IMG/VR virus record: IMGVR_UViG_3300032293_000766
Location: 1 to 64,000 of that record
DNA: 64,000 bases
Reading direction: 5' to 3' (one strand)
Origin: a virus
In this document: piece by piece, positions 16 to 10,054 of the stretch
Layout of the letters: every line of letters starts with the position of its first letter
Position numbering within the stretch: position 1 is the first letter of the stretch
Notes under the pieces: generated by a model
Database searches by the model: none
Told to the model about the DNA's origin: nothing
What the model saw: the letters and a program-made list of their open reading frames with translations, nothing else
Translations under genes and position numbers: made by a program

Positions 16-59
16 GTGCCAAAAAAGATTTTTTTCGATTTTCTCTAAACCCTTATCAA

Positions 60-125
60 ATAAAGACTTGCGACAAATGCGGCCCGCCGCCCTCGCCCTA
101 AGTCTTTTAGGGTCAAGGACTTATG
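60..125 (+). repeat. 66-bp intergenic element, copy 1
   Basis: First of four 66-bp elements. It begins ATAAAGACTT, has CCTAAGTCTTTTAGG from internal position 38 and ends ACTTATG. The left AAAGACTT is complementary to the central AAGTCTTT, and the central TAAGTC is also complementary to GACTTA at the right end, so two alternative hairpins are possible. The CCCTAA/TTAGGG palindrome sits in the centre. It lies just downstream of the stop codon of the leftward gene at 127-831. The orientation assigned is arbitrary. Confidence 0.7.
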
Positions 126-126
126 T

Positions 127-831
127 TTAGTGTGCGGGAAACAATACGTTAGCCAAGCCCTTTACACACAAATCACACGTTACACTACCCTTAGTGGGGG
201 TGCATGTTACAACACCGCGACCGCGACGAATCTCTGGGCATGTTACAAATTTAGTACCATTTAGTACAACAAGCTTGGGCAGAGACTGTCTCCAAGCCTC
301 TGCCAGATTCTTACGCTTGGGACGCTTTTTAGCAATCTTCTGATCACTATCACACCACGCAAACAGTTTGAATCCCTTTGCGAGAGCTTCTCCCATGTCT
401 TCGTCATTGTGAATACTGGCATATACTTTCATATACTTATTAAGACTTACAAGCCTATCATCATAGATATGAGTATAAAACCACATGTCAGGCAGAGTTG
501 TACCATCGGCAATAATACTCTCACAAGCCCACGTTACATTTGCAACATAGTCTAGATCAAGTTCGCCATTGAGAAACCAATCACCACGCTCATGCCAGCG
601 GATAGACTTACTTTGACGAATGGCATCAAGAATCATAGCACGAATGCGATTCTTTTCAGTTATGATATTCTGCATACCGGCGGGGCGAACATTAGGATAC
701 ATTTTTTCGGTCTGCTCTGCATAACAGCCGTTACCCAAGAAATCACAATCGGGCGGGCATGTATCACCCACCGGACGCGACACTACCAAACAACCCTTAC
801 CCAACTTGTCATTACCGTTTGCAACTTTCAT
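127..831 (-). CDS. Cysteine-rich phage protein of unknown function
   Basis: This 234-residue protein has an N-terminal cysteine cluster (C25, C29, C36, in the context GDTCPPDCDFLGNGCYAE) and a C-terminal group including CDLC, suggesting a bound metal or Fe-S cluster. The CPxxC...GCYA pattern resembles cysteine-rich phage proteins of the Gp37/Gp68 type, which are sometimes linked to radical-SAM-like enzymes, but the exact CxxxCxxC radical SAM motif is not present and no function is assigned. The start is supported by a strong Shine-Dalgarno (AAAGGAGAG) and by a promoter at 855-882. It is transcribed leftward as a single-gene unit, with a 66-bp element on each side. It is probably an early or accessory gene. 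Confidence 0.8.
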   Translation of the reverse strand: MKVANGNDKLGKGCLVVSRPVGDTCPPDCDFLGNGCYAEQTEKMYPNVRPAGMQNIITEKNRIRAMILDAIRQSKSIRWHERGDWFLNGELDLDYVANVTWACESIIADGTTLPDMWFYTHIYDDRLVSLNKYMKVYASIHNDEDMGEALAKGFKLFAWCDSDQKIAKKRPKRKNLAEAWRQSLPKLVVLNGTKFVTCPEIRRGRGVVTCTPTKGSVTCDLCVKGLANVLFPAH

Positions 832-854
832 GATTCTCTCCTTTGGATACGCTT

Positions 855-882
855 ATTATACAGTATATATCGGCATCGTCAA
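855..882 (-). promoter_or_regulatory. Sigma-70-type promoter for the 127-831 gene
   Basis: On the minus strand: TTGACG, 16-bp spacer, TATAAT, followed by a short leader with AAAGGAGAG before the ATG at 831. Confidence 0.75.
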
Positions 883-927
883 GAGGAAAAATCAAGGAAA
901 AATAAAATTGTCATAAACCATTGTGGC

Positions 928-993
928 ATAAACACTTACGGCGAATTCGCCTCGCCCGCCTTGCCCTAAGTCTTTTAGGCACAAGGCTTTACG
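928..993 (+). repeat. 66-bp intergenic element, copy 2
   Basis: Starts ATAAACACTTAC, has CCTAAGTCTTTTAGG at internal position 38 and ends GGCTTTACG, all at the same offsets as the other copies. Its left loop carries the extra palindrome GGCGAATTCGCC. The element abuts the stop codon of the leftward 52-residue gene (994-1152) and lies upstream of the promoter at 855-882. CATTG precedes it, as in copies 3 and 4. Confidence 0.7.
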
Positions 994-1152
994 TCAAGCA
1001 AAGGTTGTTTCCATCTCTATATCCCCCAAAATGCCTACAACGTCAGCCCAATCGTAAAAGTCAGACTGAACATTTGGATCGTCAATAGGCTCAACCATAC
1101 GCTCATCACGCATTTCGGCAAGAATGGCATTGACATCATCAAAGTTGTACAT
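994..1152 (-). CDS. Small acidic protein, 52 residues
   Basis: Reading leftward from the ATG at 1152 gives an open frame starting MYNFDDVNAILAEMRDERM and ending ETTFA. It is rich in Asp and Glu and has no recognisable domain. The start is supported by an AAGGTG Shine-Dalgarno nine bases upstream. It begins 12 bases after the stop of the upstream gene (1165-1365), so the two probably form a two-gene operon from the promoter at 1395-1422. A 60-residue frame overlapping it in another phase lacks a ribosome site. Function unknown. Confidence 0.6.
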   Translation of the reverse strand: MYNFDDVNAILAEMRDERMVEPIDDPNVQSDFYDWADVVGILGDIEMETTFA

Positions 1153-1164
1153 CTGTTCACCTTA

Positions 1165-1365
1165 TTAGGATTTGAGTTCTTCATATGACACGCGACGATT
1201 GACACTTCCATCTTCATTCAATTCATATACTGAACAATCGTACTCATAAAGAAAACGATTCTGGATATCCTTCAGCCAAGACGCTTTTGCTTGCTCAAAA
1301 GTCTGCATAGCTTCACGCCTGAGAAATCCATCATAAGCGATAACAAATCTTTTGTCCATTGTCAT
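1165..1365 (-). CDS. Small hypothetical protein, 66 residues
   Basis: The chosen start reads MTMDKRFVIAYDGFLRREA and is preceded by AAGAAAGAAAGA, a usable ribosome site. A longer frame starting at 1404 is rejected because it would run through the promoter at 1395-1422. The protein is charged and soluble, with no membrane segment. The short first half looks like a small alpha/beta fold, but no family is recognised. First gene of a likely two-gene leftward operon with 994-1152. Confidence 0.7.
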   Translation of the reverse strand: MTMDKRFVIAYDGFLRREAMQTFEQAKASWLKDIQNRFLYEYDCSVYELNEDGSVNRRVSYEELKS

Positions 1366-1378
1366 TCTTTCTTTCTTA

Positions 1379-1558
1379 TTAAGCCCTACGGGATAGTGTA
1401 GCATGGGAAACTATCTTGTCAAGCGTATACCATTCACCATCACCATAACGACCAGAGAGCAGAATCTTGATATTCTTGCCAATGATCTGCTGAACAGTAC
1501 CATAACCGTCAACAACTTGAACAACATCGCCAACCATAATCTTTTGCATCTTTTTCAT
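1379..1558 (-). CDS. Small SH3/KOW-like barrel protein, 59 residues
   Basis: Leftward frame from the ATG at 1558, beginning MKKMQKIMVGDVVQVVDGYG and ending TLSRRA. The pattern of hydrophobic residues around GDVVQVVDGYGTV and the later GEWY segment is typical of small SH3- or KOW-type beta barrels found in phage accessory proteins; this is a fold impression only. Its own promoter is at 1580-1607. The last codons of the gene contain the promoter for the next leftward unit (TTGACA at 1417-1422), so gene ends and promoters are overlapped to save space. Function unknown. Confidence 0.6.
   Translation of the reverse strand: MKKMQKIMVGDVVQVVDGYGTVQQIIGKNIKILLSGRYGDGEWYTLDKIVSHATLSRRA
1395..1422 (-). 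promoter_or_regulatory. Sigma-70-type promoter for 1165-1365 and 994-1152
   Basis: Minus strand: TTGACA, 16-bp spacer, TACACT. It lies inside the 3' end of the upstream 59-residue gene. Confidence 0.65.
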
Positions 1559-1579
1559 CTTTCGCTTTCTTGTGCTTGT

Positions 1580-1607
1580 ATTATATCGATTAGCAGATTG
1601 CTGTCAA
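1580..1607 (-). promoter_or_regulatory. Sigma-70-type promoter for the 1379-1558 gene
   Basis: Minus strand: perfect TTGACA, 16-bp spacer, perfect TATAAT. The -35 box directly follows a CCCTC/GAGGG hairpin that holds the stop codon of the upstream gene. Confidence 0.8.
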
Positions 1608-1624
1608 CCCCCTCATGCGAGGGT
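1608..1624 (-). other. Stop-codon hairpin abutting a promoter
   Basis: Minus strand ACCCTC-GCAT-GAGGGGGT, immediately followed by TTGACA. The TGA stop of the 1613-1831 gene overlaps the loop and right arm. There is no T-tract, so it is not a classical intrinsic terminator. A second example is at 2716-2733. Confidence 0.45.
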
Positions 1625-1831
1625 GGGATTGGAGCGATAATACTTTGCCCACAATTCATCCATCACGAACTGGACAATGCGATCATGCGAACCACGACAA
1701 ACGTAGTAGCCCATATGAATGTCGAACAGGGCAAACGTCCCATCCTCTTTTGGGTGATAGGTGAATCCACACTTGTAGGCATAGGCGTTGATTTTACCCT
1801 TGACAGTTGCAATCTTAGGAGGCTTTCTCAT
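1613..1831 (-). CDS. Small hypothetical protein, 72 residues
   Basis: Starts MRKPPKIATVKGKINAYAYK. The ATG at 1831 is preferred over one two codons upstream (1837) because the GG of AAAAGGAAA is eight bases from it but only two from the upstream one. The protein is basic and aromatic-rich (CGFTYHPKEDG, MGYYVCRG) and ends in a helix-like segment, VQFVMDELWAKYY. No family is recognised. It has its own promoter at 1866-1893 and ends in a hairpin that abuts the promoter of the next unit. Confidence 0.65.
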   Translation of the reverse strand: MRKPPKIATVKGKINAYAYKCGFTYHPKEDGTFALFDIHMGYYVCRGSHDRIVQFVMDELWAKYYRSNPTLA

Positions 1832-1865
1832 TTTCATTTCCTTTTCTCTTACTTGTTATATCGAC

Positions 1866-1893
1866 ATTATACAGAGTATTCTTGAACTTGCAA
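1866..1893 (-). promoter_or_regulatory. Sigma-70-type promoter for the 1613-1831 gene
   Basis: Minus strand: TTGCAA, 16-bp spacer, TATAAT. The same TTGCAA variant with the same spacer recurs at 2979-3006. Confidence 0.65.
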
Positions 1894-1936
1894 GCGAAAA
1901 GTTTCCTTACAATTCCGTAAGGTTCGCATAGAGAGT

Positions 1937-1953
1937 TTGGCACGATATTTGCT
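1937..1953 (+). promoter_or_regulatory. Sigma-54-type (-24/-12) promoter sequence
   Basis: TTGGCACG-ATAT-TTGCT matches the sigma-54 consensus YTGGCACG-N4-TTGCW at every defined base, with the required GG/GC spacing. It lies 41 bases upstream of 66-bp element copy 3 and reads toward it. An alternative reading is a sigma-70 promoter, TTGGCA-N17-TAGAAT (TAGAAT at 1960-1965). That alternative is absent from the sister site at 3071-3087, which favours the sigma-54 reading. Confidence 0.5.
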
Positions 1954-1993
1954 AGTGTGTAGAATATGAGCATTGAACGTAAGTCATTGGTAC

Positions 1994-2059
1994 ATAAACA
2001 CTTACATCAAACGCGGCAGGCCACTTTCGTCATAAGTCTTTATGTGGCAAGACTTTACG
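1994..2059 (+). repeat. 66-bp intergenic element, copy 3
   Basis: Starts ATAAACACTTACATCAA, has CATAAGTCTTTATG at internal position 38 and ends GACTTTACG. The central palindrome changes from CCTAA/TTAGG in copies 1 and 2 to CATAA/TTATG here, keeping the pairing. The 16 bases before it (ACGTAAGTCATTGGTA) closely match those before copy 4. It lies between the leftward gene at 2156-2476 and the promoter at 1866-1893. Confidence 0.75.
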
Positions 2060-2155
2060 ACGATTGTGTGCATTGTATTCAATCTCTGACAATTGTACAG
2101 GTGTACAACATTCCACACCAGCAAACTGCAAATAGTAATGCGCCTATCATTGTTA

Positions 2156-2476
2156 TTACTCCTTAAATGAAAAGGGGCTAATTTCTATACGCTGTACAAC
2201 ACTATACTGCTTGGCTAATTCTTCAACACGTTCACGCGATCCCGGCTTACCTACTGGAACGATCATAGTATCGTCACCACCAGAGTATCGCGGGTCAATC
2301 TTTTCTTTTGTTACCTTACCAAGATTCTTCAAGGCTTTACGATTGAACTTGAGTACCTTTTCCACTTGAATCATCTCACCATCAATACTCTTTACCTCTG
2401 TTGGGATTGCCATTCCAAGGAAACACATACGTGCTTGACGCTTGGCATTTTCGATGATGGGGAATTTGGTAGCCAT
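2156..2476 (-). CDS. Hypothetical phage protein, 106 residues
   Basis: Starts MATKFPIIENAKRQARMCFL; a GAGGAT ribosome site lies about ten bases upstream. The sequence is a mixed charged protein with a beta-rich middle (IDGEMIQVEKVLKF), a flexible Gly/Asp segment (SGGDDT) and a helical C-terminus (ERVEELAKQY). No signal peptide or membrane segment is visible, and no family is recognised. It is transcribed from its own promoter at 2517-2545 and is followed by a 100-base gap that holds element copy 3. Confidence 0.75.
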   Translation of the reverse strand: MATKFPIIENAKRQARMCFLGMAIPTEVKSIDGEMIQVEKVLKFNRKALKNLGKVTKEKIDPRYSGGDDTMIVPVGKPGSRERVEELAKQYSVVQRIEISPFSFKE

Positions 2477-2516
2477 TGTTTTCTATCCTCTTGGGTTATC
2501 GTTCTCTTGTGCGTGT

Positions 2517-2545
2517 ATTCTATCAAACTTCTTTTGCTGTGTCAA
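2517..2545 (-). promoter_or_regulatory. Sigma-70-type promoter for the 2156-2476 gene
   Basis: Minus strand: TTGACA, 17-bp spacer, TAGAAT. The -35 box starts directly after the TGA stop of the small upstream gene (2546-2662). Confidence 0.7.
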
Positions 2546-2662
2546 TCACATTTCATCGAACATATCTTGAACAGCGTTACCCACTTCGTGAGCAGTGTAG
2601 GACATGAAACCAGCAAACGTAATAAGGGCAAACAGTTGGGCGTATTCGATAACCGTAATCAT
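2546..2662 (-). CDS. Very small hydrophobic protein, 38 residues
   Basis: Leftward frame from the ATG at 2662: begins MITVIEYAQLFALITFAGF and ends DMFDEM. Residues 5-24 form one hydrophobic segment long enough to span a membrane, followed by an acidic tail. It has a GAGAG ribosome site and its own promoter (2688-2715), and its stop codon directly precedes the next promoter. This regular packing supports it being a real gene despite its size. Function unknown; a small inner-membrane phage protein is possible. Confidence 0.5.
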   Translation of the reverse strand: MITVIEYAQLFALITFAGFMSYTAHEVGNAVQDMFDEM

Positions 2663-2687
2663 TAGAGTCTCTCTTTCTTGTGTGTTT

Positions 2688-2715
2688 ATTCTAGCAAATT
2701 TTTTCTTCGTGTCAA
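2688..2715 (-). promoter_or_regulatory. Sigma-70-type promoter for the 2546-2662 gene
   Basis: Minus strand: TTGACA, 16-bp spacer, TAGAAT. The -35 box follows the hairpin at 2716-2733. Confidence 0.65.
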
Positions 2716-2733
2716 CCCCCTCTATTAGAGGGT
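2716..2733 (-). other. Stop-codon hairpin abutting a promoter
   Basis: Minus strand ACCCTCTAATAGAGGGGG, then TTGACA. The TAA stop of the 2725-2943 gene lies at the loop. Same design as at 1608-1624; no T-tract. Confidence 0.45.
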
Positions 2734-2943
2734 CATCAATCCCTTGAAGTGTGAGAAGGTCAGCGTAAGCTTTTGACCAGCGTACTTATGATCGATATAC
2801 GCTTGTGCAGAGCTTTTCCGATTATCGGTAGCCCCGACATACTGTACAACCGTACCATGCTGATCGATTACCTTCCAGACTTTCTTCTGTGTAATCTTGG
2901 GGAGGCTGTTGATGAAACTGTTGACTGAGGTTGCTTTTTCCAT
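2725..2943 (-). CDS. Small hypothetical protein, 72 residues
   Basis: Begins MEKATSVNSFINSLPKITQK; a GAGAAGAGA stretch upstream serves as ribosome site. The remainder (KKVWKVIDQHGTVVQYVGAT, then a SAQAYIDHK helix and a beta-like C-terminus) looks like a small alpha/beta protein. No family is recognised. It is the first leftward gene after the divergence region, transcribed from the promoter at 2979-3006. Confidence 0.7.
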   Translation of the reverse strand: MEKATSVNSFINSLPKITQKKVWKVIDQHGTVVQYVGATDNRKSSAQAYIDHKYAGQKLTLTFSHFKGLMTL

Positions 2944-2978
2944 TTTCTCTTCTCTTCTTTCTTACTTCTTATATCGAC

Positions 2979-3006
2979 ATTATAGCAAACATTCTTTAGC
3001 TTGCAA
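2979..3006 (-). promoter_or_regulatory. Sigma-70-type promoter for the 2725-2943 gene
   Basis: Minus strand: TTGCAA, 16-bp spacer, TATAAT; rightmost of the leftward promoters. Confidence 0.7.
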
Positions 3007-3025
3007 GAGAAAAATCCAAATAATA

Positions 3026-3045
3026 TTGTCAAGAGATTTTGACAA
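3026..3045. other. Perfect 7-bp inverted repeat
   Basis: TTGTCAA-gagatt-TTGACAA is a possible operator between the leftward promoter and the sigma-54-type site. Each arm contains a -35-like TTGACA, but no -10 box lies at a workable distance on either strand. Confidence 0.35.
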
Positions 3046-3070
3046 AACTTTCTTTCTCTTTTCCCTATAC

Positions 3071-3087
3071 TTGGCACACCGTTTGCT
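3071..3087 (+). promoter_or_regulatory. Sigma-54-type (-24/-12) promoter sequence
   Basis: TTGGCACA-CCGT-TTGCT differs from the sigma-54 consensus only at the weakly conserved G. It lies 46 bases upstream of element copy 4, the same arrangement as at 1937-1953. No sigma-70 -10 box is present 17 bases from TTGGCA here. Confidence 0.5.
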
Positions 3088-3132
3088 ATAGCAAGACCTA
3101 TGCCAGACCCTTTTTACGTAAATCATTGATAT

Positions 3133-3198
3133 ATAAAGACTTACATCAAGTTCGGCACTGACCGTAGCACCTAACTCCTTATGTACTAACGACTTATG
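3133..3198 (+). repeat. 66-bp intergenic element, copy 4
   Basis: Starts ATAAAGACTTACATCAA, has CCTAACTCCTTATG at internal position 38 and ends GACTTATG. It is the most diverged copy in the centre, but its landmarks are at the same offsets. It is preceded by ACGTAAATCATTGATAT, which matches the flank of copy 3. It lies between the leftward promoter (2979-3006) and the rightward late genes. Confidence 0.7.
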
Positions 3199-3564: not shown

Positions 3565-4147
3565 ATACGTAATTAACTCTAGCAACCTACTTGAATTAAC
3601 AAATGAGCAACTAGACCCCAATGTAGCAAAGACTCTTGAACTAATCGATTATGAGTCCTACTATATATATTCATTAGTTAAGCTAACGCCCCCCAACGCC
3701 ATCTCTATAGGTGAGCGCGGTATAGGTAAGTTTAAGAAAATACTAGACAAGACATACCTAGTACGTTTACGCCCCATCACACTATTCTACAACGGTGAAC
3801 TCAAGCAGGCTAACGTATATACCAAACCCACTAATATGGTATGCGTAGACAAGGAAGTTATCTCCCTATCCGTAGATCCGCCCCTCTCACTTGATGAGTT
3901 CTTCGCATTTCCATATAGTGTTGTTTATTCTAATGAGTCTGGCCTAGTTGACGCCGTTACTTTAGATGATAATTGTGTCTTAGGAAGAATTGGTTCAAGT
4001 GTAAAATCATTAAATATTAATGACTTATTCAAGGCTACTTCTTATGATTCCTGTAAAGATGCGCCAAAGACTAAGGGGCTTATTATATATGATAATGCCG
4101 ATGACTGTTTAAAATATTACAGCGGTAAAGGATGGCGTAAAATATGA
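3524..4147 (+). CDS. Hypothetical phage protein, 207 residues
   Basis: The chosen start MNRQQLPLNNCLAKYVINSS has AAGGG about eight bases upstream; an ATG at 3509 has no ribosome site. The protein is mostly beta-like with conserved-looking hydrophobic stretches (YLVRLRPITLFYNG, DEFFAFPYSVVY) and a Lys/Gly-rich end (YYSGKGWRKI). No domain is recognised. Its stop overlaps the start of the sigma factor gene (ATGA), so the two are probably translated as a pair. A role in late transcription is possible from position only. Confidence 0.75.
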   Translation: MNRQQLPLNNCLAKYVINSSNLLELTNEQLDPNVAKTLELIDYESYYIYSLVKLTPPNAISIGERGIGKFKKILDKTYLVRLRPITLFYNGELKQANVYTKPTNMVCVDKEVISLSVDPPLSLDEFFAFPYSVVYSNESGLVDAVTLDDNCVLGRIGSSVKSLNINDLFKATSYDSCKDAPKTKGLIIYDNADDCLKYYSGKGWRKI

Positions 4148-4632
4148 AAATACCGTCAAACATGACAGAAGAAGAACTGGTTGCACAAATCAATAAAGTA
4201 ATAGATAGAATATCCCCCAAGTATACATTTTACGGTTATGACATAAACGATATTAAGCAAGAGTCTTTTATTATTTGCTTAGATGCACTAGATCGCTACG
4301 ATGAAACGCGCCCCCTTGAAAACTTCTTATCTGTCCACCTGTCAAATAGATTAAAAAACTTTGTACGCGACAACTACTCTTTTAGTAATAATTATGAAAA
4401 AAGAAGAGTCTGTTCCCCTATGCAATTATCTTATGAAGAAAATGTAGAAAATAACGAAACTACTCACAGCGTTGATTTTAAAGATATGGATGAATTAATC
4501 TCTGATCGCTTGCCAGCGCGCTATCGCTCAGATTACCTTAAGTTTATTAACAACGTTGCTATGACCAAGGCTAAAAGGGAAAAAATAGTCGCTCTAATAA
4601 AGGAAATAATGGAGGATATAAATAATGCGTAA
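4144..4632 (+). CDS. Short RNA polymerase sigma factor (region 2 only), probable late sigma
   Basis: The 162-residue protein contains a sigma-70 region 2-like stretch at about residues 28-78: DINDIKQESFIICLDALDRY, then FLSVHLSNRLKNFVRDNYS. This matches the helical core that binds RNA polymerase and the -10 element. No region 4 is visible, so no canonical -35 recognition is expected. Size and layout resemble the T4 gp55 class of late sigma factors (family knowledge). It sits at the head of the rightward morphogenesis genes, overlapping the preceding gene by ATGA and the following gene by eight bases. Its likely role is to direct host polymerase to late promoters, possibly the GTGTATWNTA motif seen upstream of seven genes here (inference). 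Confidence 0.75.
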   Translation: MKIPSNMTEEELVAQINKVIDRISPKYTFYGYDINDIKQESFIICLDALDRYDETRPLENFLSVHLSNRLKNFVRDNYSFSNNYEKRRVCSPMQLSYEENVENNETTHSVDFKDMDELISDRLPARYRSDYLKFINNVAMTKAKREKIVALIKEIMEDINNA

Positions 4633-5410
4633 GGGGCGTATTTCTAAAGAAGAAGAGCGTATTATTTCGCGCCTAATTAATACTATGGTGCCAGAAGATA
4701 TAGCTAAAGAGCTAGATCGTGATGTGGAATCTATAGATCAGTTTATTAAGCGAAAATTTAGACACAATTTATCACCAGAAGAAGAGGCCACTTACTCACT
4801 AGAAGATCGCCCCTATTGGGGTGAATTAGCTTCACAATTTACTGAGGAAGAATTAGAGTTGTTTAAATACCACTGGGGTAGAATCATATCACAGTTTAAT
4901 GATGACGTTTTCCCAACAGAAGAGTTGCAAGTAATAGACGTTATAAAATTAGAGATATTAATGAATAGGTGCCTTAGAAGTAATAAGGATAATATAGTAC
5001 AGATAAACGTTTACGATAAAATGATTGCGACTGAACGCGAGCGCGAAAAAGATCAACAAGACATGGACTATATATTCAACCTAGAAAGACAGTCTGCTTC
5101 TCTACGAGCTTCTCAGGAAGCTCTAAATAAAGACTATCGTGAACTACAAACAAAGAAGGCCGCTATACTTCGTGAAATGAAGGGTACACGCGAACAGAGA
5201 ATAAAGCGATTGGAGGACTCTAAGCAAAGTTTTACTAGCTGGGTAGCTATGCTAATCGATAATCCAGACAAAATGAAACAATATGGAATTGAGATGGAGA
5301 AAATGCGCCTTGCTACAGAAAAGGAGAAGGAACGCCTTTCTTCTTATCATACCTACGCAGATAATACAGTAGATCAACCATTTCTTACACCGGATACAAT
5401 TAAGGACTAA
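4625..5410 (+). CDS. Helix-turn-helix and coiled-coil protein, candidate small terminase subunit
   Basis: This 261-residue protein has an N-terminal helix-turn-helix-like segment (residues 5-40: EEERIISRLINTMVPEDIAK then DRDVESIDQFIKRK), a middle helical region and a strongly charged coiled coil (about residues 135-200). A DNA-binding N-terminus with an oligomerising helical body, three kilobases before the large terminase, is typical of small terminase subunits. Several intervening genes and the adjacent sigma factor leave a transcription regulator as the alternative. No direct motif proves packaging function. Confidence 0.55.
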   Translation: MRKGRISKEEERIISRLINTMVPEDIAKELDRDVESIDQFIKRKFRHNLSPEEEATYSLEDRPYWGELASQFTEEELELFKYHWGRIISQFNDDVFPTEELQVIDVIKLEILMNRCLRSNKDNIVQINVYDKMIATEREREKDQQDMDYIFNLERQSASLRASQEALNKDYRELQTKKAAILREMKGTREQRIKRLEDSKQSFTSWVAMLIDNPDKMKQYGIEMEKMRLATEKEKERLSSYHTYADNTVDQPFLTPDTIKD

Positions 5411-5412
5411 TT

Positions 5413-6465
5413 ATGAAAAAGGCTATTATATTTGGAATCACTGGACAGGACGGCAGTCACCTAGCAGACCTATTATTAGAGAAAGATTATAGTGTCATTG
5501 GTGTAACTCGTCGCTGTAGTGTGGATAATACCCAAAGATTAAAACATCTGTCTGATTGTGATAGCTTCAATTTGATCGAAGGGGATATAACAGATGTAAG
5601 TAGTGTAATTAATATTTTTAAGAATAACGAAGATGTAGATGAGGTCTATAATCTAGCCGCACAATCGCATGTTGCAACCTCGTTTAGCCAACCAGCATTA
5701 ACATGGGACATAACCGGCAAAGGCTGCTTAAATGTACTCCAAGCTATTGTGGATACAGGTAATAATTGCAAATTTTACCAAGCCTCATCTAGTGAAATGT
5801 TTGGTAGTTCATTTGATCTAGATAAAGATGGAAGTAAATATCAAGACGAAAATACTAAATTTATGCCCAACTCACCATACGCTATATCAAAATGCGCGGC
5901 ACATTATTTAGTTAGATTGTATCGTGATGCTTACAATGTGCATGGTAGCTGTGGAATATTATTCAATCACGAAGGCCCGCGAAGAGGCGATAATTTCGTA
6001 ACCCAAAAAATAGTCAAATGGACTGTGAGTTTTAAGAAATGGCTAAATTCTATTAATCATTCATCAAATAATGTGTTTGTTAATAACCATAATATTATTG
6101 TCGGTGACAGCGTATTTCCAAAATTAAAGCTTGGAAATATAGATACATATAGAGATTGGGGATATGCTGGAGATTATGTTGAAGCTATGTGGCTTATGCT
6201 ACAGCAAGAAATACCAGACGATTATGTGATTTGCACTGGCAACTCACACACTGTTTGGGAATTTCTAGATCTTTGTTTTAAGTATACTAATTTAGATAGC
6301 ATTATAGATTGGAAAGATGCTATGTATATTGATCCGCAGTTAGTTAGACCCTCAGAAGTCCCATACTTACGCGGTGATTGTTCAAAAGCAAAAAGTGTTC
6401 TAGGTTGGAGTCCAAAGCATGATCTATACGGATTGGTGAAACTGATGATAGATGCAAAACTATAG
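5413..6465 (+). CDS. gmd: GDP-mannose 4,6-dehydratase
   Basis: Full-length (350 residues) extended short-chain dehydrogenase converting GDP-D-mannose to GDP-4-keto-6-deoxy-D-mannose, the precursor of GDP-fucose, GDP-rhamnose and related sugars. The N-terminal NAD(P) loop is GITGQDG (residues 8-14). The active-site segment is ASSSEMFG (S126, E128), with Y156 and K160 in SPYAISK. Family signatures GILFNHEGPRRGDNFVTQK, RDWGYAGDYVEAMWLML and RPSEVPYLRGD are all present, so the enzyme looks intact. It starts two bases after the preceding stop and overlaps the next gene, so it is co-expressed with the packaging genes. Possible uses are remodelling host surface polysaccharide or glycosylating phage components (inference). 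Confidence 0.93.
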   Translation: MKKAIIFGITGQDGSHLADLLLEKDYSVIGVTRRCSVDNTQRLKHLSDCDSFNLIEGDITDVSSVINIFKNNEDVDEVYNLAAQSHVATSFSQPALTWDITGKGCLNVLQAIVDTGNNCKFYQASSSEMFGSSFDLDKDGSKYQDENTKFMPNSPYAISKCAAHYLVRLYRDAYNVHGSCGILFNHEGPRRGDNFVTQKIVKWTVSFKKWLNSINHSSNNVFVNNHNIIVGDSVFPKLKLGNIDTYRDWGYAGDYVEAMWLMLQQEIPDDYVICTGNSHTVWEFLDLCFKYTNLDSIIDWKDAMYIDPQLVRPSEVPYLRGDCSKAKSVLGWSPKHDLYGLVKLMIDAKL

Positions 6466-6706
6466 ACTAACAATAGATCTTTCTGATGTATATCAAGAGC
6501 TAGTATCGTACTCTGTACATTTAATAGGATACACTATACCATTTTCTCTAGTTTTCATAGAAGCAGATAATTATGACGATGCGTGTTTTGTCGTAGTGGA
6601 TCGATTAATAAAGTACGTCTTAAAAAAAGATAAGTCCATAAAAAGTAGAATACTTTGTAGAAAAATCAAAAAATTTATTAGAATCACTAAAGTAGAAAAA
6701 CTATGA
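6452..6706 (+). CDS. Hypothetical protein, 84 residues
   Basis: Begins MQNYRLTIDLSDVYQELVSY, overlapping the end of the dehydratase gene by 14 bases, and ends overlapping the HNH gene by ATGA. It has a hydrophobic centre (LIGYTIPFSLVFIEA) and a very basic C-terminus (KYVLKKDKSIKSRILCRKIKK). The compact overlaps argue for a translated gene. No family is recognised. Confidence 0.7.
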   Translation: MQNYRLTIDLSDVYQELVSYSVHLIGYTIPFSLVFIEADNYDDACFVVVDRLIKYVLKKDKSIKSRILCRKIKKFIRITKVEKL

Positions 6707-6969
6707 GTAATAGAAAAATTTCAGAAGATGTCTATAAGCGTTTTACTCAGGATGTAAAAAAACGAGATAAAAGACAATGCCAAATGCCAGGATGTAAATC
6801 TAAAAGTAGGTTGCAAGTTCATCATATAAAAATGTGGTCTAGTGCAGCATCTCTAAGATATGATACTGATAATGGTATTACTTTATGTAAATCTTGCCAT
6901 GATAGCATCAAGAACAAAGAAAAACAATACGAAAAATTATTTAGAGAGATAGTAGATGGCAAACTATAA
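6703..6969 (+). CDS. HNH endonuclease
   Basis: An 88-residue protein with a compact HNH fold: zinc ligands C26 and C31 (CQMPGC), the HNH histidine pair H40-H41 (VHHI), N57 and the C-terminal CKSCH (C62, C65, H66). In many phages a free HNH protein next to the terminase genes cooperates with TerL in cutting concatemeric DNA (HK97 gp74 class). Position five frames upstream of TerL fits this, although a homing-type or general nuclease cannot be excluded. It overlaps both neighbours by a few bases. Confidence 0.85.
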   Translation: MSNRKISEDVYKRFTQDVKKRDKRQCQMPGCKSKSRLQVHHIKMWSSAASLRYDTDNGITLCKSCHDSIKNKEKQYEKLFREIVDGKL

Positions 6970-7459
6970 AGTCGCACCACCTTTTACTGTAATTAAGGAC
7001 ACTAGAGAACAGGAGGGTTATTACTTTAGTAAATTCAACACATGCGCTGGCATGATTGATCAAAAACTAGATACTGGTGACTATACAATACAAGGCTTAG
7101 AAGATAAAGTTTGTATAGAGCGCAAAGGATGTGTGGAAGAATTAGCTATAAATTTGGGACAAAAAAAACATCAGTTCCTACAAGAGATTGACCGTATGCA
7201 ATCATTCCCACATAGATTTATAGTTTTAGAGTTTTCTTTGGAAGAATTAATAAAGTTTCCCGAAGATACCAGAATACCTATTAAAAATCAATCATCATTA
7301 AAAATTACTGGCAAATACATGCTTAAGTGCATAGTTGAATTTCAAATATACAATAACATCAATGTCTTATTCTGCGGAAATAAAAAGTCAGCATTCCTTG
7401 CTGTTAGTAGCATTTTTAAGCGAATTAATGAAATGTACACTATTGGAAGAAAGAAATAA
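6956..7459 (+). CDS. ERCC4/XPF-type nuclease
   Basis: The 167-residue protein has the XPF/Mus81 nuclease core: KDTREQ (D15), LDTGDYTI (G41-D42) and the signature IERKG (E55, R56, K57), equivalent to the family GD...ERKxxxD. The family's last acidic position appears as Glu (VEEL). A helix-hairpin-helix domain is absent, as in other short phage and archaeal versions. Such enzymes cut branched DNA. Next to the HNH and terminase genes, a role in trimming replication intermediates before packaging is plausible. It overlaps the HNH gene by 14 bases. Confidence 0.85.
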   Translation: MANYKVAPPFTVIKDTREQEGYYFSKFNTCAGMIDQKLDTGDYTIQGLEDKVCIERKGCVEELAINLGQKKHQFLQEIDRMQSFPHRFIVLEFSLEELIKFPEDTRIPIKNQSSLKITGKYMLKCIVEFQIYNNINVLFCGNKKSAFLAVSSIFKRINEMYTIGRKK

Positions 7460-7460
7460 T

Positions 7461-8087
7461 ATGGCAATTACACATGACAAATTGTTTGATTTACATAATT
7501 ATGGCTGCAATATAAAGACTAGAGAAATATTTTTGCATAATACTTATGCATCAGACGAGAACAGTAATCCCGGCGTTGAATATAAAATGGCTAATACGTT
7601 CATAAAAAATGTACGTGTTTTGGAACAAGATAACAACAATGAAATTTTCATACATATGCATAGTATAGGTGGAGAATGGTCTGACGGAATGGCTATATTC
7701 GATACTATTACTATGTGCAAATCCCATGTAACCATAATAGTTTATGGACAGGCAGAGTCTATGAGTAGTATCATTTTACAAGCTGCTGATAAACGACTTA
7801 TGACGCCAAATTCTTACTTTATGTCCCATTTTGGCTCTAGCGATGCTAATGGTCATTATTTAAATGTTCAAAACTGGGTTAAATATGAGAAAAACCTTTG
7901 TGACATCATGATGGATATTTATGCTAGCAGATGCGTAAAAGGTAAATATTTCAAAGATCAGAATTGGGATTTAACAAAAGTCAAAAACTTTCTTTATAGA
8001 AAGATGAAGAATGGCGATTGGTATATAAACGCTAATGATGCAGTAAACTATGGATTTGCTGATAAGGTTATTACATCATGGGAGTAA
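7461..8087 (+). CDS. ClpP-like serine protease
   Basis: The start at 7461 (MAITHDKLFDLHNYG) follows a GGAAGAAAG ribosome site; a longer frame overlapping the nuclease gene lacks one. The protein is a ClpP/S14-type peptidase of 208 residues: oxyanion motif HMHSIGGEWSDGMA, nucleophile S100 in GQAESMSS, H123 in FMSHFG, and D186 aligned with the ClpP triad Asp, before the terminal AVNYGFADKV. All three catalytic residues are present. ClpP-fold proteases serve as prohead maturation proteases in many phages, although here it precedes the large terminase and a second protease-like domain lies in 12136-13599. It overlaps TerL by ten bases. Confidence 0.88.
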   Translation: MAITHDKLFDLHNYGCNIKTREIFLHNTYASDENSNPGVEYKMANTFIKNVRVLEQDNNNEIFIHMHSIGGEWSDGMAIFDTITMCKSHVTIIVYGQAESMSSIILQAADKRLMTPNSYFMSHFGSSDANGHYLNVQNWVKYEKNLCDIMMDIYASRCVKGKYFKDQNWDLTKVKNFLYRKMKNGDWYINANDAVNYGFADKVITSWE

Positions 8088-10054
8088 ATGATCTTAAAAT
8101 AGTAGAAGAAGCATGGCTTGGTTTAGATCAAGTTGGAAGCAACTTTTTTAATCCTATGCAATTCGTTGCTTCTGATGATGAAGAATTTAATATAAGATTA
8201 GCTTGGCTTATGACCCAGCCCGACTATCTTCCATTTATAGCCAAGCATATTTTAAACACTCAACTTCTTCCATCTCAATCTTTGATTTTAAGAGAACTAT
8301 GGGAGCGTAAATTTCCTATGCTTATCGCTACTCGCGGCGCGGGAAAGTCTTTTATGCTTTCACTATATTCCATACTACGCGCATTAATACTACCAAAAAG
8401 AAAAATTGTTATTGTTGGTGCTGCTTTTCGTCAGTCCAAAATATTGTTTGAATACATGGAAACGATATGGAACAATTCTCCAATGTTGAGAGATGTTTGC
8501 GATGGAGACAGTGGCCCAAGAAGAGATACTGATCGTTGTACTCTTAAGCTTAATGATAGCACTATAACCTGTTTACCTTTAGGTGATGGTCAAAAGATTA
8601 GAGGTCAACGCGCCAACGATATCATATGCGACGAATTCGCGTCTGTTCCAAGAGAAATTTTCGAAAACGTTGTTGCCGGTTTCGCTGCTGTTAGTGCTAA
8701 CCCAGTAGAAAATGTAAAGAGATTGGCAGCAGAGCAAAAAGCTATAGAATTAGGTATTGATCTTGATAAACCTGTAGAGATCAAAAAAGACAATCAAATT
8801 ATTTTATCTGGAACTGCTTACTATGATTTTAATCACTTTGCTACTTATTGGAAAAAGTGGAAATCTATAATTAAAAGCAAGGGTGATGTAAACATGTTAC
8901 GCGAAATTTTTGGAGAAGATCCTCCAGAAAATTTTGATTGGAAACAATATTCTATAATACGTATACCATACGAACTATTACCTAGAGGCTTCATGGATGC
9001 TGATCAAGTAGCAAGATCTAAAGCTACTGTACATACTGGTATTTATCAAATGGAATATGGAGCTTGTTTCACAAGAGATTCTCAAGGATTTTTTAAGAGA
9101 TCATTGGTAGAATCCTGTATCGCTTCAGTATCTAATAACATCATAGACAGTAACGGTAATACGATACATTTTAATGCGTCTTTAATTGGTAATAAAGAAA
9201 AGCGTTATGTATATGGCGTAGACCCCGCTTCAGAAGTTGATAATTTTAGTATTGTTGTTTTAGAACTAGATGGTAACTATAGAAAAATAGTACATTGCTG
9301 GACAACTACGCGAACAGAGCATAAAGAAAAAGTTAAAAAGGGATATGTATCTGAAACAGACTTCTACTCATATTGTGCTAGAAAAATTAGAGATTTAATG
9401 CAGCTATTTCCATGCCTACACGTTTCTATTGACGCGCAGGGCGGCGGTATAGCAGTCATGGAATCGTTGCACGATAAAGATAAATTAAAACCTGGAGAAT
9501 TTCTAGTATGGCCTACTATTGAAGATAGTAAACCAAAGGATACAGACGATGAGCGCGGATTACACATATTAGAGATGTGTCAATTTGCTAGACATGATTG
9601 GCTAGCAGAAGCGAATCATGGAATGAGAAAGGATTTTGAAGACAAGGTTCTACTGTTCCCAGATTTTGACGCTATTAGTTTGGCTATATCTGAATCAGAA
9701 GATATATCTAGAAGTCGAATGTTTGACACTTTAGAAGAATGCGTAATTGAGATTGAAGAACTAAAAGATGAATTATCTATGATACAAATGACTCAAACTT
9801 CTAATGGTAGAGATAGGTGGGACACCCCAGAAGTTTTAGTTCGTACTGGTAAAAAAAATAAGATCAGAAAAGATAGATACTCTGCATTATTAATGGCAAA
9901 CATGGCTGCGCGTACAATACAAAGAACACCGACTGCTCACGAATACAATTTTTATGGCGGATTTGCTAATGGAGATTATCAAAAGAAGAACAAGGATGAA
10001 GATTACTATTCTGGCCCAAGCTGGTTTACTGACACTATGAAAGATGTGTATTAA
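8078..10054 (+). CDS. terL: Terminase large subunit
   Basis: 658-residue packaging motor. The ATPase domain shows Walker A ATRGAGKS (K90) and Walker B IICDEFA (D185, catalytic E186). The C-terminal RNase H-like nuclease has its three acidic positions: D382 (GVDPAS), D452 (SIDAQGGG) and D599 (RKDRYSA). It powers DNA entry through the portal and cuts the concatemer. The start overlaps the ClpP-like gene. A long insertion-rich linker (about residues 200-300) separates ATPase and nuclease, as in other large phages. The last codons contain a GTGTATTAA motif that may promote transcription of the portal gene. Confidence 0.96.
   Translation: MGVNDLKIVEEAWLGLDQVGSNFFNPMQFVASDDEEFNIRLAWLMTQPDYLPFIAKHILNTQLLPSQSLILRELWERKFPMLIATRGAGKSFMLSLYSILRALILPKRKIVIVGAAFRQSKILFEYMETIWNNSPMLRDVCDGDSGPRRDTDRCTLKLNDSTITCLPLGDGQKIRGQRANDIICDEFASVPREIFENVVAGFAAVSANPVENVKRLAAEQKAIELGIDLDKPVEIKKDNQIILSGTAYYDFNHFATYWKKWKSIIKSKGDVNMLREIFGEDPPENFDWKQYSIIRIPYELLPRGFMDADQVARSKATVHTGIYQMEYGACFTRDSQGFFKRSLVESCIASVSNNIIDSNGNTIHFNASLIGNKEKRYVYGVDPASEVDNFSIVVLELDGNYRKIVHCWTTTRTEHKEKVKKGYVSETDFYSYCARKIRDLMQLFPCLHVSIDAQGGGIAVMESLHDKDKLKPGEFLVWPTIEDSKPKDTDDERGLHILEMCQFARHDWLAEANHGMRKDFEDKVLLFPDFDAISLAISESEDISRSRMFDTLEECVIEIEELKDELSMIQMTQTSNGRDRWDTPEVLVRTGKKNKIRKDRYSALLMANMAARTIQRTPTAHEYNFYGGFANGDYQKKNKDEDYYSGPSWFTDTMKDVY

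What the first reader, a model, noticed from the sequence alone, without database searches (positions are those of the whole stretch)
60..3198. Four copies of an unrecognised 66-bp intergenic element with fixed spacing
Copies at 60-125, 928-993, 1994-2059 and 3133-3198 run exactly 66 bp from ATAAA to the terminal TTACG/TTATG. In all four the central palindrome starts at internal position 38. The centre changes from CCTAA/TTAGG to CATAA/TTATG with pairing kept, which suggests a structured RNA or a palindromic protein site. The central AAGTC can pair either with the left AAGACTT-like arm or with the right GACTT arm, giving two exclusive hairpins as in an attenuator or switch. Copies lie between leftward transcription units.
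Basis: seen in the sequence. Interest (0 to 1): 0.75.

Follow-up and report, generated by a model that had tools for sequence, protein, structure and literature searches.

The report
Swappable twin-palindrome phage promoter element
Uncultured large phages carry up to about 20 copies of an exactly 82-bp double palindrome in front of the strong promoters of a fast-changing gene region; the evidence fits a DNA docking site for an unknown protein, not an RNA switch, and its two halves appear to be swapped independently between genes and phages.

Summary
The four copies are real, but the 66-bp unit is truncated. The true element is an exactly 82-bp near-palindrome: two 29-bp palindromes (CGTAAGTCCTT-N7-AAGGACTTACG) around a GC-rich core. 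In this record it occurs only in the first 3.2 kb. In 68 of 80 related phage loci it recurs about every 1.2 kb; four fetched relatives hold 7-19 copies, each in one 16-20 kb cluster. Length is 82 bp in 534 of 553 pairs although many copies are under 70% identical.

RNA reading: not supported. Across 347 non-redundant copies, candidate helices pair no more than column-shuffled sequence, apart from a 2-point excess in one short stem.

DNA-site reading: 71% of copies precede a strong sigma-70 promoter with an UP element. Spacing peaks at 18, 28 and 38 bp (period about 10.5; 58 independent modules), as expected for a protein on one DNA face. The other 12 loci carry in the same place a different fixed 44-bp element (two CTGCCAAAATGGCAG palindromes around a GC core), also phased. 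Hybrids exist, and homology breaks fall inside the element.

Best reading: a promoter-upstream protein-binding cassette that doubles as a module-exchange border, resembling T4-type PeSLs. Binding protein and host are unknown.

The parts
44..125 (-). 82-bp element, copy 1 (strand = direction of adjacent genes; the element itself is near-palindromic)
   Evidence: Half-unit scan and alignment; starts 1 bp after the stop of gene 127-831; TTGACA 31 bp downstream, then the contig ends
912..993 (-). 82-bp element, copy 2
   Evidence: 0 bp after the stop of gene 994-1152; -35 box 29 bp downstream
1978..2059 (-). 82-bp element, copy 3
   Evidence: nearest sigma-70 promoter 84 bp downstream
3117..3198 (-). 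82-bp element, copy 4 (most diverged)
   Evidence: nearest matching promoter 110 bp downstream
855..882 (-). Sigma-70 promoter TTGACG-N16-TATAAT with CCGATA spacer motif, 29 bp from copy 2, in front of gene 127-831
   Evidence: same class as the group promoter found by iterated matrix
127..831 (-). Gene of the GP88 / DUF7227 family, between copies 1 and 2; used to find relatives
   Evidence: Pfam PF23872 and PF17338 above cut-off; 113 relatives in viral contigs
994..1152 (-). Small gene whose stop codon abuts copy 2 (52 aa, no family)

Best explanation
The element is a double-stranded DNA binding site, part of a composite early-region cassette: end of upstream gene or tRNA, left palindromic arm, GC-rich core, right palindromic arm, UP element, sigma-70 promoter, next gene. 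A sequence-specific regulator (host or phage protein, not identified, probably dimeric) would bind the arms and contact or position RNA polymerase from upstream, on one face of the helix, either activating or silencing. The same cassette marks the borders of interchangeable gene modules: exchange occurs inside it, so left arms travel with upstream genes and right arms with downstream genes. Shown here: anatomy, fixed length, promoter linkage, helical phasing, independent arm types, absence of RNA covariation. Inferred: that a protein binds, its dimeric nature, the sign of regulation, and recombination as the cause of arm swapping.
For: Fixed 82-bp length in 534 of 553 pairs despite divergence. 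No RNA covariation; couplings are adjacent dinucleotides plus the inner dyad. 71% of 252 non-redundant copies precede a strong sigma-70 promoter, 0% of upstream regions do. Distance to -35 peaks at 18, 28, 38 bp with an empty valley at 20-24; one vote per gene module (58) gives phase concentration 0.70 at 10.5 bp, not reached in 5000 null draws. The A/T tracts align to -35 like an UP element. A second element type with the same plan, fixed 29-bp palindrome spacing and its own phasing occupies the same place in 12 relatives; no contig of 63 further loci has both; hybrids occur. Flank homology breaks inside the element.
Against: No binding protein found: candidate array proteins occur in both types or have no family. 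The GC core is conserved in composition, not in sequence, which simple operators do not need. Three of four window copies do not have a complete promoter at a phased distance. One gene-module cluster has an off-phase minority at 33 bp. Left arms in hybrids are varied palindromes, so some arms might act as hairpins instead. Upstream-only homology rests on few strict pairs (12). Related sequences can inflate the phasing statistic even after clustering.
Confidence: 0.6

Rival explanations
1. Terminator or insulator: the palindromes form hairpins that end the upstream transcript, and the cassette is a composite terminator-promoter without any bound protein.
For: Position directly after stop codons and tRNA genes. 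Single copies fold stably on the gene strand, z -2.0 to -5.8. Some hybrid left arms are C/G-run palindromes.
Against: The bases right after the element are A-rich rather than T-rich: T-tract in 31%, A-tract in 50%, and the tracts align to -35. Pairing is not maintained by covariation. Exact 82-bp and 44-bp lengths and promoter phasing are not needed for a terminator.
Confidence: 0.17
2. Mobile palindrome pair (REPIN-like) or site-specific recombination site (integron attC-like): the elements are there because they spread or recombine, and promoter linkage is secondary.
For: Two inverted palindromes around a short core, dispersed between genes; arms assort independently. Stand-alone 29-bp palindromes occur in a Phycisphaerae assembly, some beside tRNA genes.
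Against: No tyrosine recombinase in 17 records and no RAYT-type transposase in 14. Copies are confined to one cluster per phage. Helical phasing to the promoter is unexplained. A host-encoded enzyme is not excluded.
Confidence: 0.15
3. Structured RNA, attenuator or switch with two exclusive hairpins.
For: Window copies fold better than shuffles. About 13% of copies can form the left hairpin.
Against: No covariation beyond a 2-point excess in one short stem. The element lies upstream of the next promoter, so not in that gene's leader. No Rfam match.
Confidence: 0.03

Closest known systems
PeSL composite promoter-terminator motifs of T4-type phages (Arbiol et al. 2010; Comeau et al. 2014)
   Same: Repeated intergenic cassettes with an early sigma-70 promoter, in variable regions, acting as points of exchange between unrelated genes. 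The two papers are not held; they are known here from their titles in PMC4177764 and PMC5931544 and otherwise from memory.
   Different: PeSLs are described as a stem-loop terminator plus promoter. Here there is a fixed-length double palindrome with GC core, no U-tract, helical phasing to the promoter, and two alternative arm types with hybrids. The phages are not T4-type isolates.
Operators and stoperators of L5-like mycobacteriophages (PMC9283540)
   Same: More than twenty repressor sites per genome in promoters and short intergenic spaces; specificity differs between phages.
   Different: Those are 13-bp asymmetric, orientation-dependent sites for a monomeric repressor, spread through the genome. 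Here the site is 82 bp, symmetric, in one cluster, with no repressor known.
REP / REPIN repeats (PMC3116915, PMC3733652)
   Same: Pairs of inverted palindromes separated by a short core, between genes.
   Different: REPINs are bacterial and tied to RAYT transposases; none is encoded here. Exact length, GC core, promoter phasing and confinement to a phage early region are not REPIN features.
Integron attC sites (general knowledge)
   Same: Two inverted simple sites after the stop codon of each module of a same-direction array.
   Different: No integrase of the tyrosine family. Length is fixed, whereas attC sites vary in length. Units have their own promoters.
UP element with class I activator site (general knowledge)
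   Same: Upstream site at helically phased distances from a sigma-70 promoter, beside an A/T-rich UP element.
   Different: No activator known; site is double with a GC core and repeated about 20 times.

Membership tests
T4-type PeSL | Early sigma-70 promoter in the cassette | tested here: met
   71% of 252 copies
T4-type PeSL | Stem-loop transcription terminator in the cassette | tested here: not met
   No U-tract tied to the element, no covariation; transcript ends could not be tested
T4-type PeSL | Point of exchange between unrelated flanking genes | tested here: met
   Left half follows upstream flank, right half follows downstream flank; strict upstream-only set is small
L5-type stoperator | Short asymmetric oriented site | tested here: not met
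   82-bp near-palindrome, 44-bp in the other type
L5-type stoperator | Phage-encoded repressor that binds the site | not testable with these tools
   No candidate found
REPIN | RAYT transposase in the genome | tested here: not met
   PF01797 absent from 14 records, control genomes ring
Integron attC | Tyrosine integrase in the genome | tested here: not met
   PF00589 absent from 17 records, all 14 control genomes ring; a host enzyme is not excluded
Integron attC | Variable length with conserved fold | tested here: not met
   82 bp in 534 of 553 pairs, no covariation
Structured RNA / riboswitch | Compensatory base changes in helices | tested here: not met
Upstream activator or operator site | Helical phasing to the promoter | tested here: met
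   58 modules, phase concentration 0.70 at 10.5 bp; type II likewise
Upstream activator or operator site | Specific protein binding | not testable with these tools
   Needs binding experiments

The most novel reading that the evidence does not exclude
A previously undescribed combinatorial promoter-border system: a GC-rich core at which recombination joins independently chosen left and right palindromic arms (at least two sequence-specific types plus hybrids), each arm at its own spacing to the core and the right arm phased to a sigma-70/UP promoter. Any acquired gene would thereby come under one common early regulator whose DNA specificity differs between otherwise related phages.
Probability: 0.35. 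Interest if true: 0.78.

Novelty: new variant of a known kind. Interest (0 to 1): 0.62.

Why it matters
If right, it shows how large phages can pick up and shuffle small early genes while keeping each under shared control: the regulatory site is itself the crossover point. The swap of element type between related phages gives a natural test of regulator specificity, including whether the types exclude each other as immunity types do. The elements are also strong sequence tags for an abundant, wholly uncultured phage group and for finding its host.

Tried and rejected
RNA family search: none. RNA covariation: none beyond column shuffling apart from one weak stem. tRNA reading: no tRNA in the window. 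Tyrosine recombinase: absent. RAYT: absent. Intrinsic terminator: no U-tract tied to the element.

Specificity factor: comparing type I and II genomes gave a 71-aa array protein that on a wider search occurs in both types, and an 85-aa protein after the array without a family, not pursued. Pfam and PHROGs scans of 56 conserved proteins showed no obvious regulator among the 25 families listed in each; the rest of the lists were not shown.

Host: the three GTDB hits lie in assemblies of different phyla. Stand-alone palindromes show a modest excess in Planctomycetota (14 of 199 genomes, control 0) over Bacteroidota (3 of 99), mostly single hits, and a stricter pattern found 2 of 101 in the class of the Phycisphaerae assembly: too weak to name a host.

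The first DNA-pattern scan of viral contigs gave mostly unrelated hits. The PeSL papers are not held. Literature searches found no description of either element.

Full report
Observation. The four 66-bp copies exist at the stated coordinates and align without gaps. They score 74.6-93.7 bits in their own matrix against -7.8 for the next unrelated + strand site in 64 kb. The same matrix also hit the opposite strand over the same places, shifted by 16 bp, which revealed the true unit: an 82-bp near-palindrome at 44-125, 912-993, 1978-2059 and 3117-3198. Across relatives each 29-bp half is itself a dyad: CGTAAGTCCTT, 7 variable bases, AAGGACTTACG. Copy 4 breaks the centre pairing.

Where it occurs. 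The window is bases 1-64000 of a 135,211-bp virus record. The other 71 kb were read and hold no further copy; the record begins inside the array. The leftward gene between copies 1 and 2 belongs to the GP88/DUF7227 families and has 113 relatives in viral contigs. Of 80 fetched loci, 68 hold paired half-sites, in many loci 8-13 per 16 kb. The distance between outer ends is 82 bp in 534 of 553 pairs, though 97 copies are mutually under 70% identical. In large records all listed copies lie in one stretch of roughly 16-20 kb; four fetched type I relatives hold 17, 15, 19 and 7 copies. Median spacing is 1.2 kb. There is no close cultured relative: terminase and GP88 match known phages only at about 25% identity.

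Not an RNA. Positions 8-12/31-35 exceed the shuffle slightly, 0.518 vs 0.495 +/- 0.007. G-T and A-C mismatches show no strand asymmetry beyond composition (all). Mean folding energy on the gene strand is -23.2, against -22.2 to -23.1 for shuffles; the other strand is not better than shuffled. The strongest couplings are between adjacent bases at symmetric places, plus inner dyad positions 22-24/59-61, which I read as a DNA-recognition pattern. The window copies fold well singly, as palindromes do.

Promoter linkage and phasing. Of 252 non-redundant copies, 71% are followed by a strong sigma-70 promoter with a group-specific CCGATA spacer motif; none of the equally long upstream regions has one. 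The -35 box lies mostly 17-19, 25-30 or 37-40 bp from the element end, with one case at 20-24. With one vote per independent gene module (58), the phase concentration is 0.70 at 10.5 bp, not reached in 5000 smoothed-null draws. Several orthologous modules differ by about one turn; one cluster has an off-phase minority at 33 bp. An A-tract, a T-tract and a second A-run align to the -35 like an UP element, which removes the U-tract argument for a terminator. Promoters of this class also exist outside the array, where there are no elements. Window copy 2 follows the rule (29 bp); copy 1 has TTGACA at 31 bp just before the contig end; copies 3 and 4 lie 84 and 110 bp from the nearest matching promoters.

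A second element in the same place. The 12 GP88 loci without the 82-bp element all carry, upstream of the same promoter, two CTGCCAAAATGGCAG-like palindromes around a GC-rich core. Palindrome spacing is 29 bp in 154 of 163 pairs, giving a 44-bp element, and the distance to -35 again has separated peaks near 12 and 23 bp. Among 63 further loci no contig holds both types. Some loci have hybrids: a type I right arm, a GC core, and on the left a type II-like palindrome, a C/G-run palindrome or others. A contig binned as Cytophagales shows one too. In the II-I hybrids the inter-arm distance read by eye is 18 bp, near the 19 expected if each arm keeps its own distance to the core (12 and 7). The core (columns 38-44) is 96-99% G+C but variable in sequence.

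Module borders. For pairs of copies with homologous upstream but non-homologous downstream flanks, identity is raised in the left half; for the reverse case, in the right half. The effect is modest. A strict set has 125 downstream-only but only 12 upstream-only pairs. tRNA genes also end at elements. I infer exchange inside the element.

What was not found. No tyrosine recombinase, no RAYT transposase, no type-specific DNA-binding protein. The host is unknown. Stand-alone 29-bp palindromes occur in one Phycisphaerae assembly, several beside tRNA genes, with a weak excess in Planctomycetota.

Verdict. The best-supported mechanism is a promoter-upstream protein-binding DNA site that doubles as an exchange border for early gene modules. 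It works like PeSL cassettes in module exchange and like a phage operator array in copy number and specificity variants, but a defining feature of each was tested and not met (terminator stem-loop with U-tract; short asymmetric site). I therefore call it a new variant of a known kind.

Noticed in passing
window 1938-1951 (+) and 3072-3085 (+); G010 142190-145052; G007 4479-8566; G012 136617-139734: Sites matching the sigma-54 -24/-12 consensus (TTTGGCAC-N5-TTTGCT) cluster in the arrays of both types, often 27-45 bp from an element and pointing at it, in G010 as overlapping divergent pairs. Some hybrid elements seem to use this motif as left arm.
   Followed up: partly
L080, L067, G007, G012 and 8 further loci: Type II element: CTGCCAAAATGGCAG, 14-bp GC core, CTGCCAAAATGGCAG; a scan found the exact form in 68 viral stretches.
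   Followed up: yes
G021 (Phycisphaerae assembly), loci L401-L410; L319 4541 and 7674: Stand-alone 29-bp type I palindromes in bacterial DNA, several directly at tRNA 3' ends; in L319 two copies, one ahead of a ribbon-helix-helix-like gene and what looks like an ardC gene (reading by eye).
   Followed up: partly
G001 133900-134115 and 153254-153511: Two small conserved proteins without Pfam family (71 and 85 aa) at the two ends of the array; the 71-aa one also occurs in type II phages.
   Followed up: partly
L070 2753, L272 4273-4400, L012 833, L282 5192 (downstream of elements): Another repeat family, GCAAAATGCTACAC-like, in tandem in some arrays.
   Followed up: no
L207, L044, L053, L063 (array regions): Seven to ten tRNA genes lie within or next to the array; a G013 region also holds a tmRNA with tag GETRFALAA.
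   Followed up: no
window 4144-4632 (+): Gene with weak similarity to sigma-70 region 2 (Pfam below cut-off; PHROG 1740 sigma factor, E 9.5e-6).
   Followed up: no
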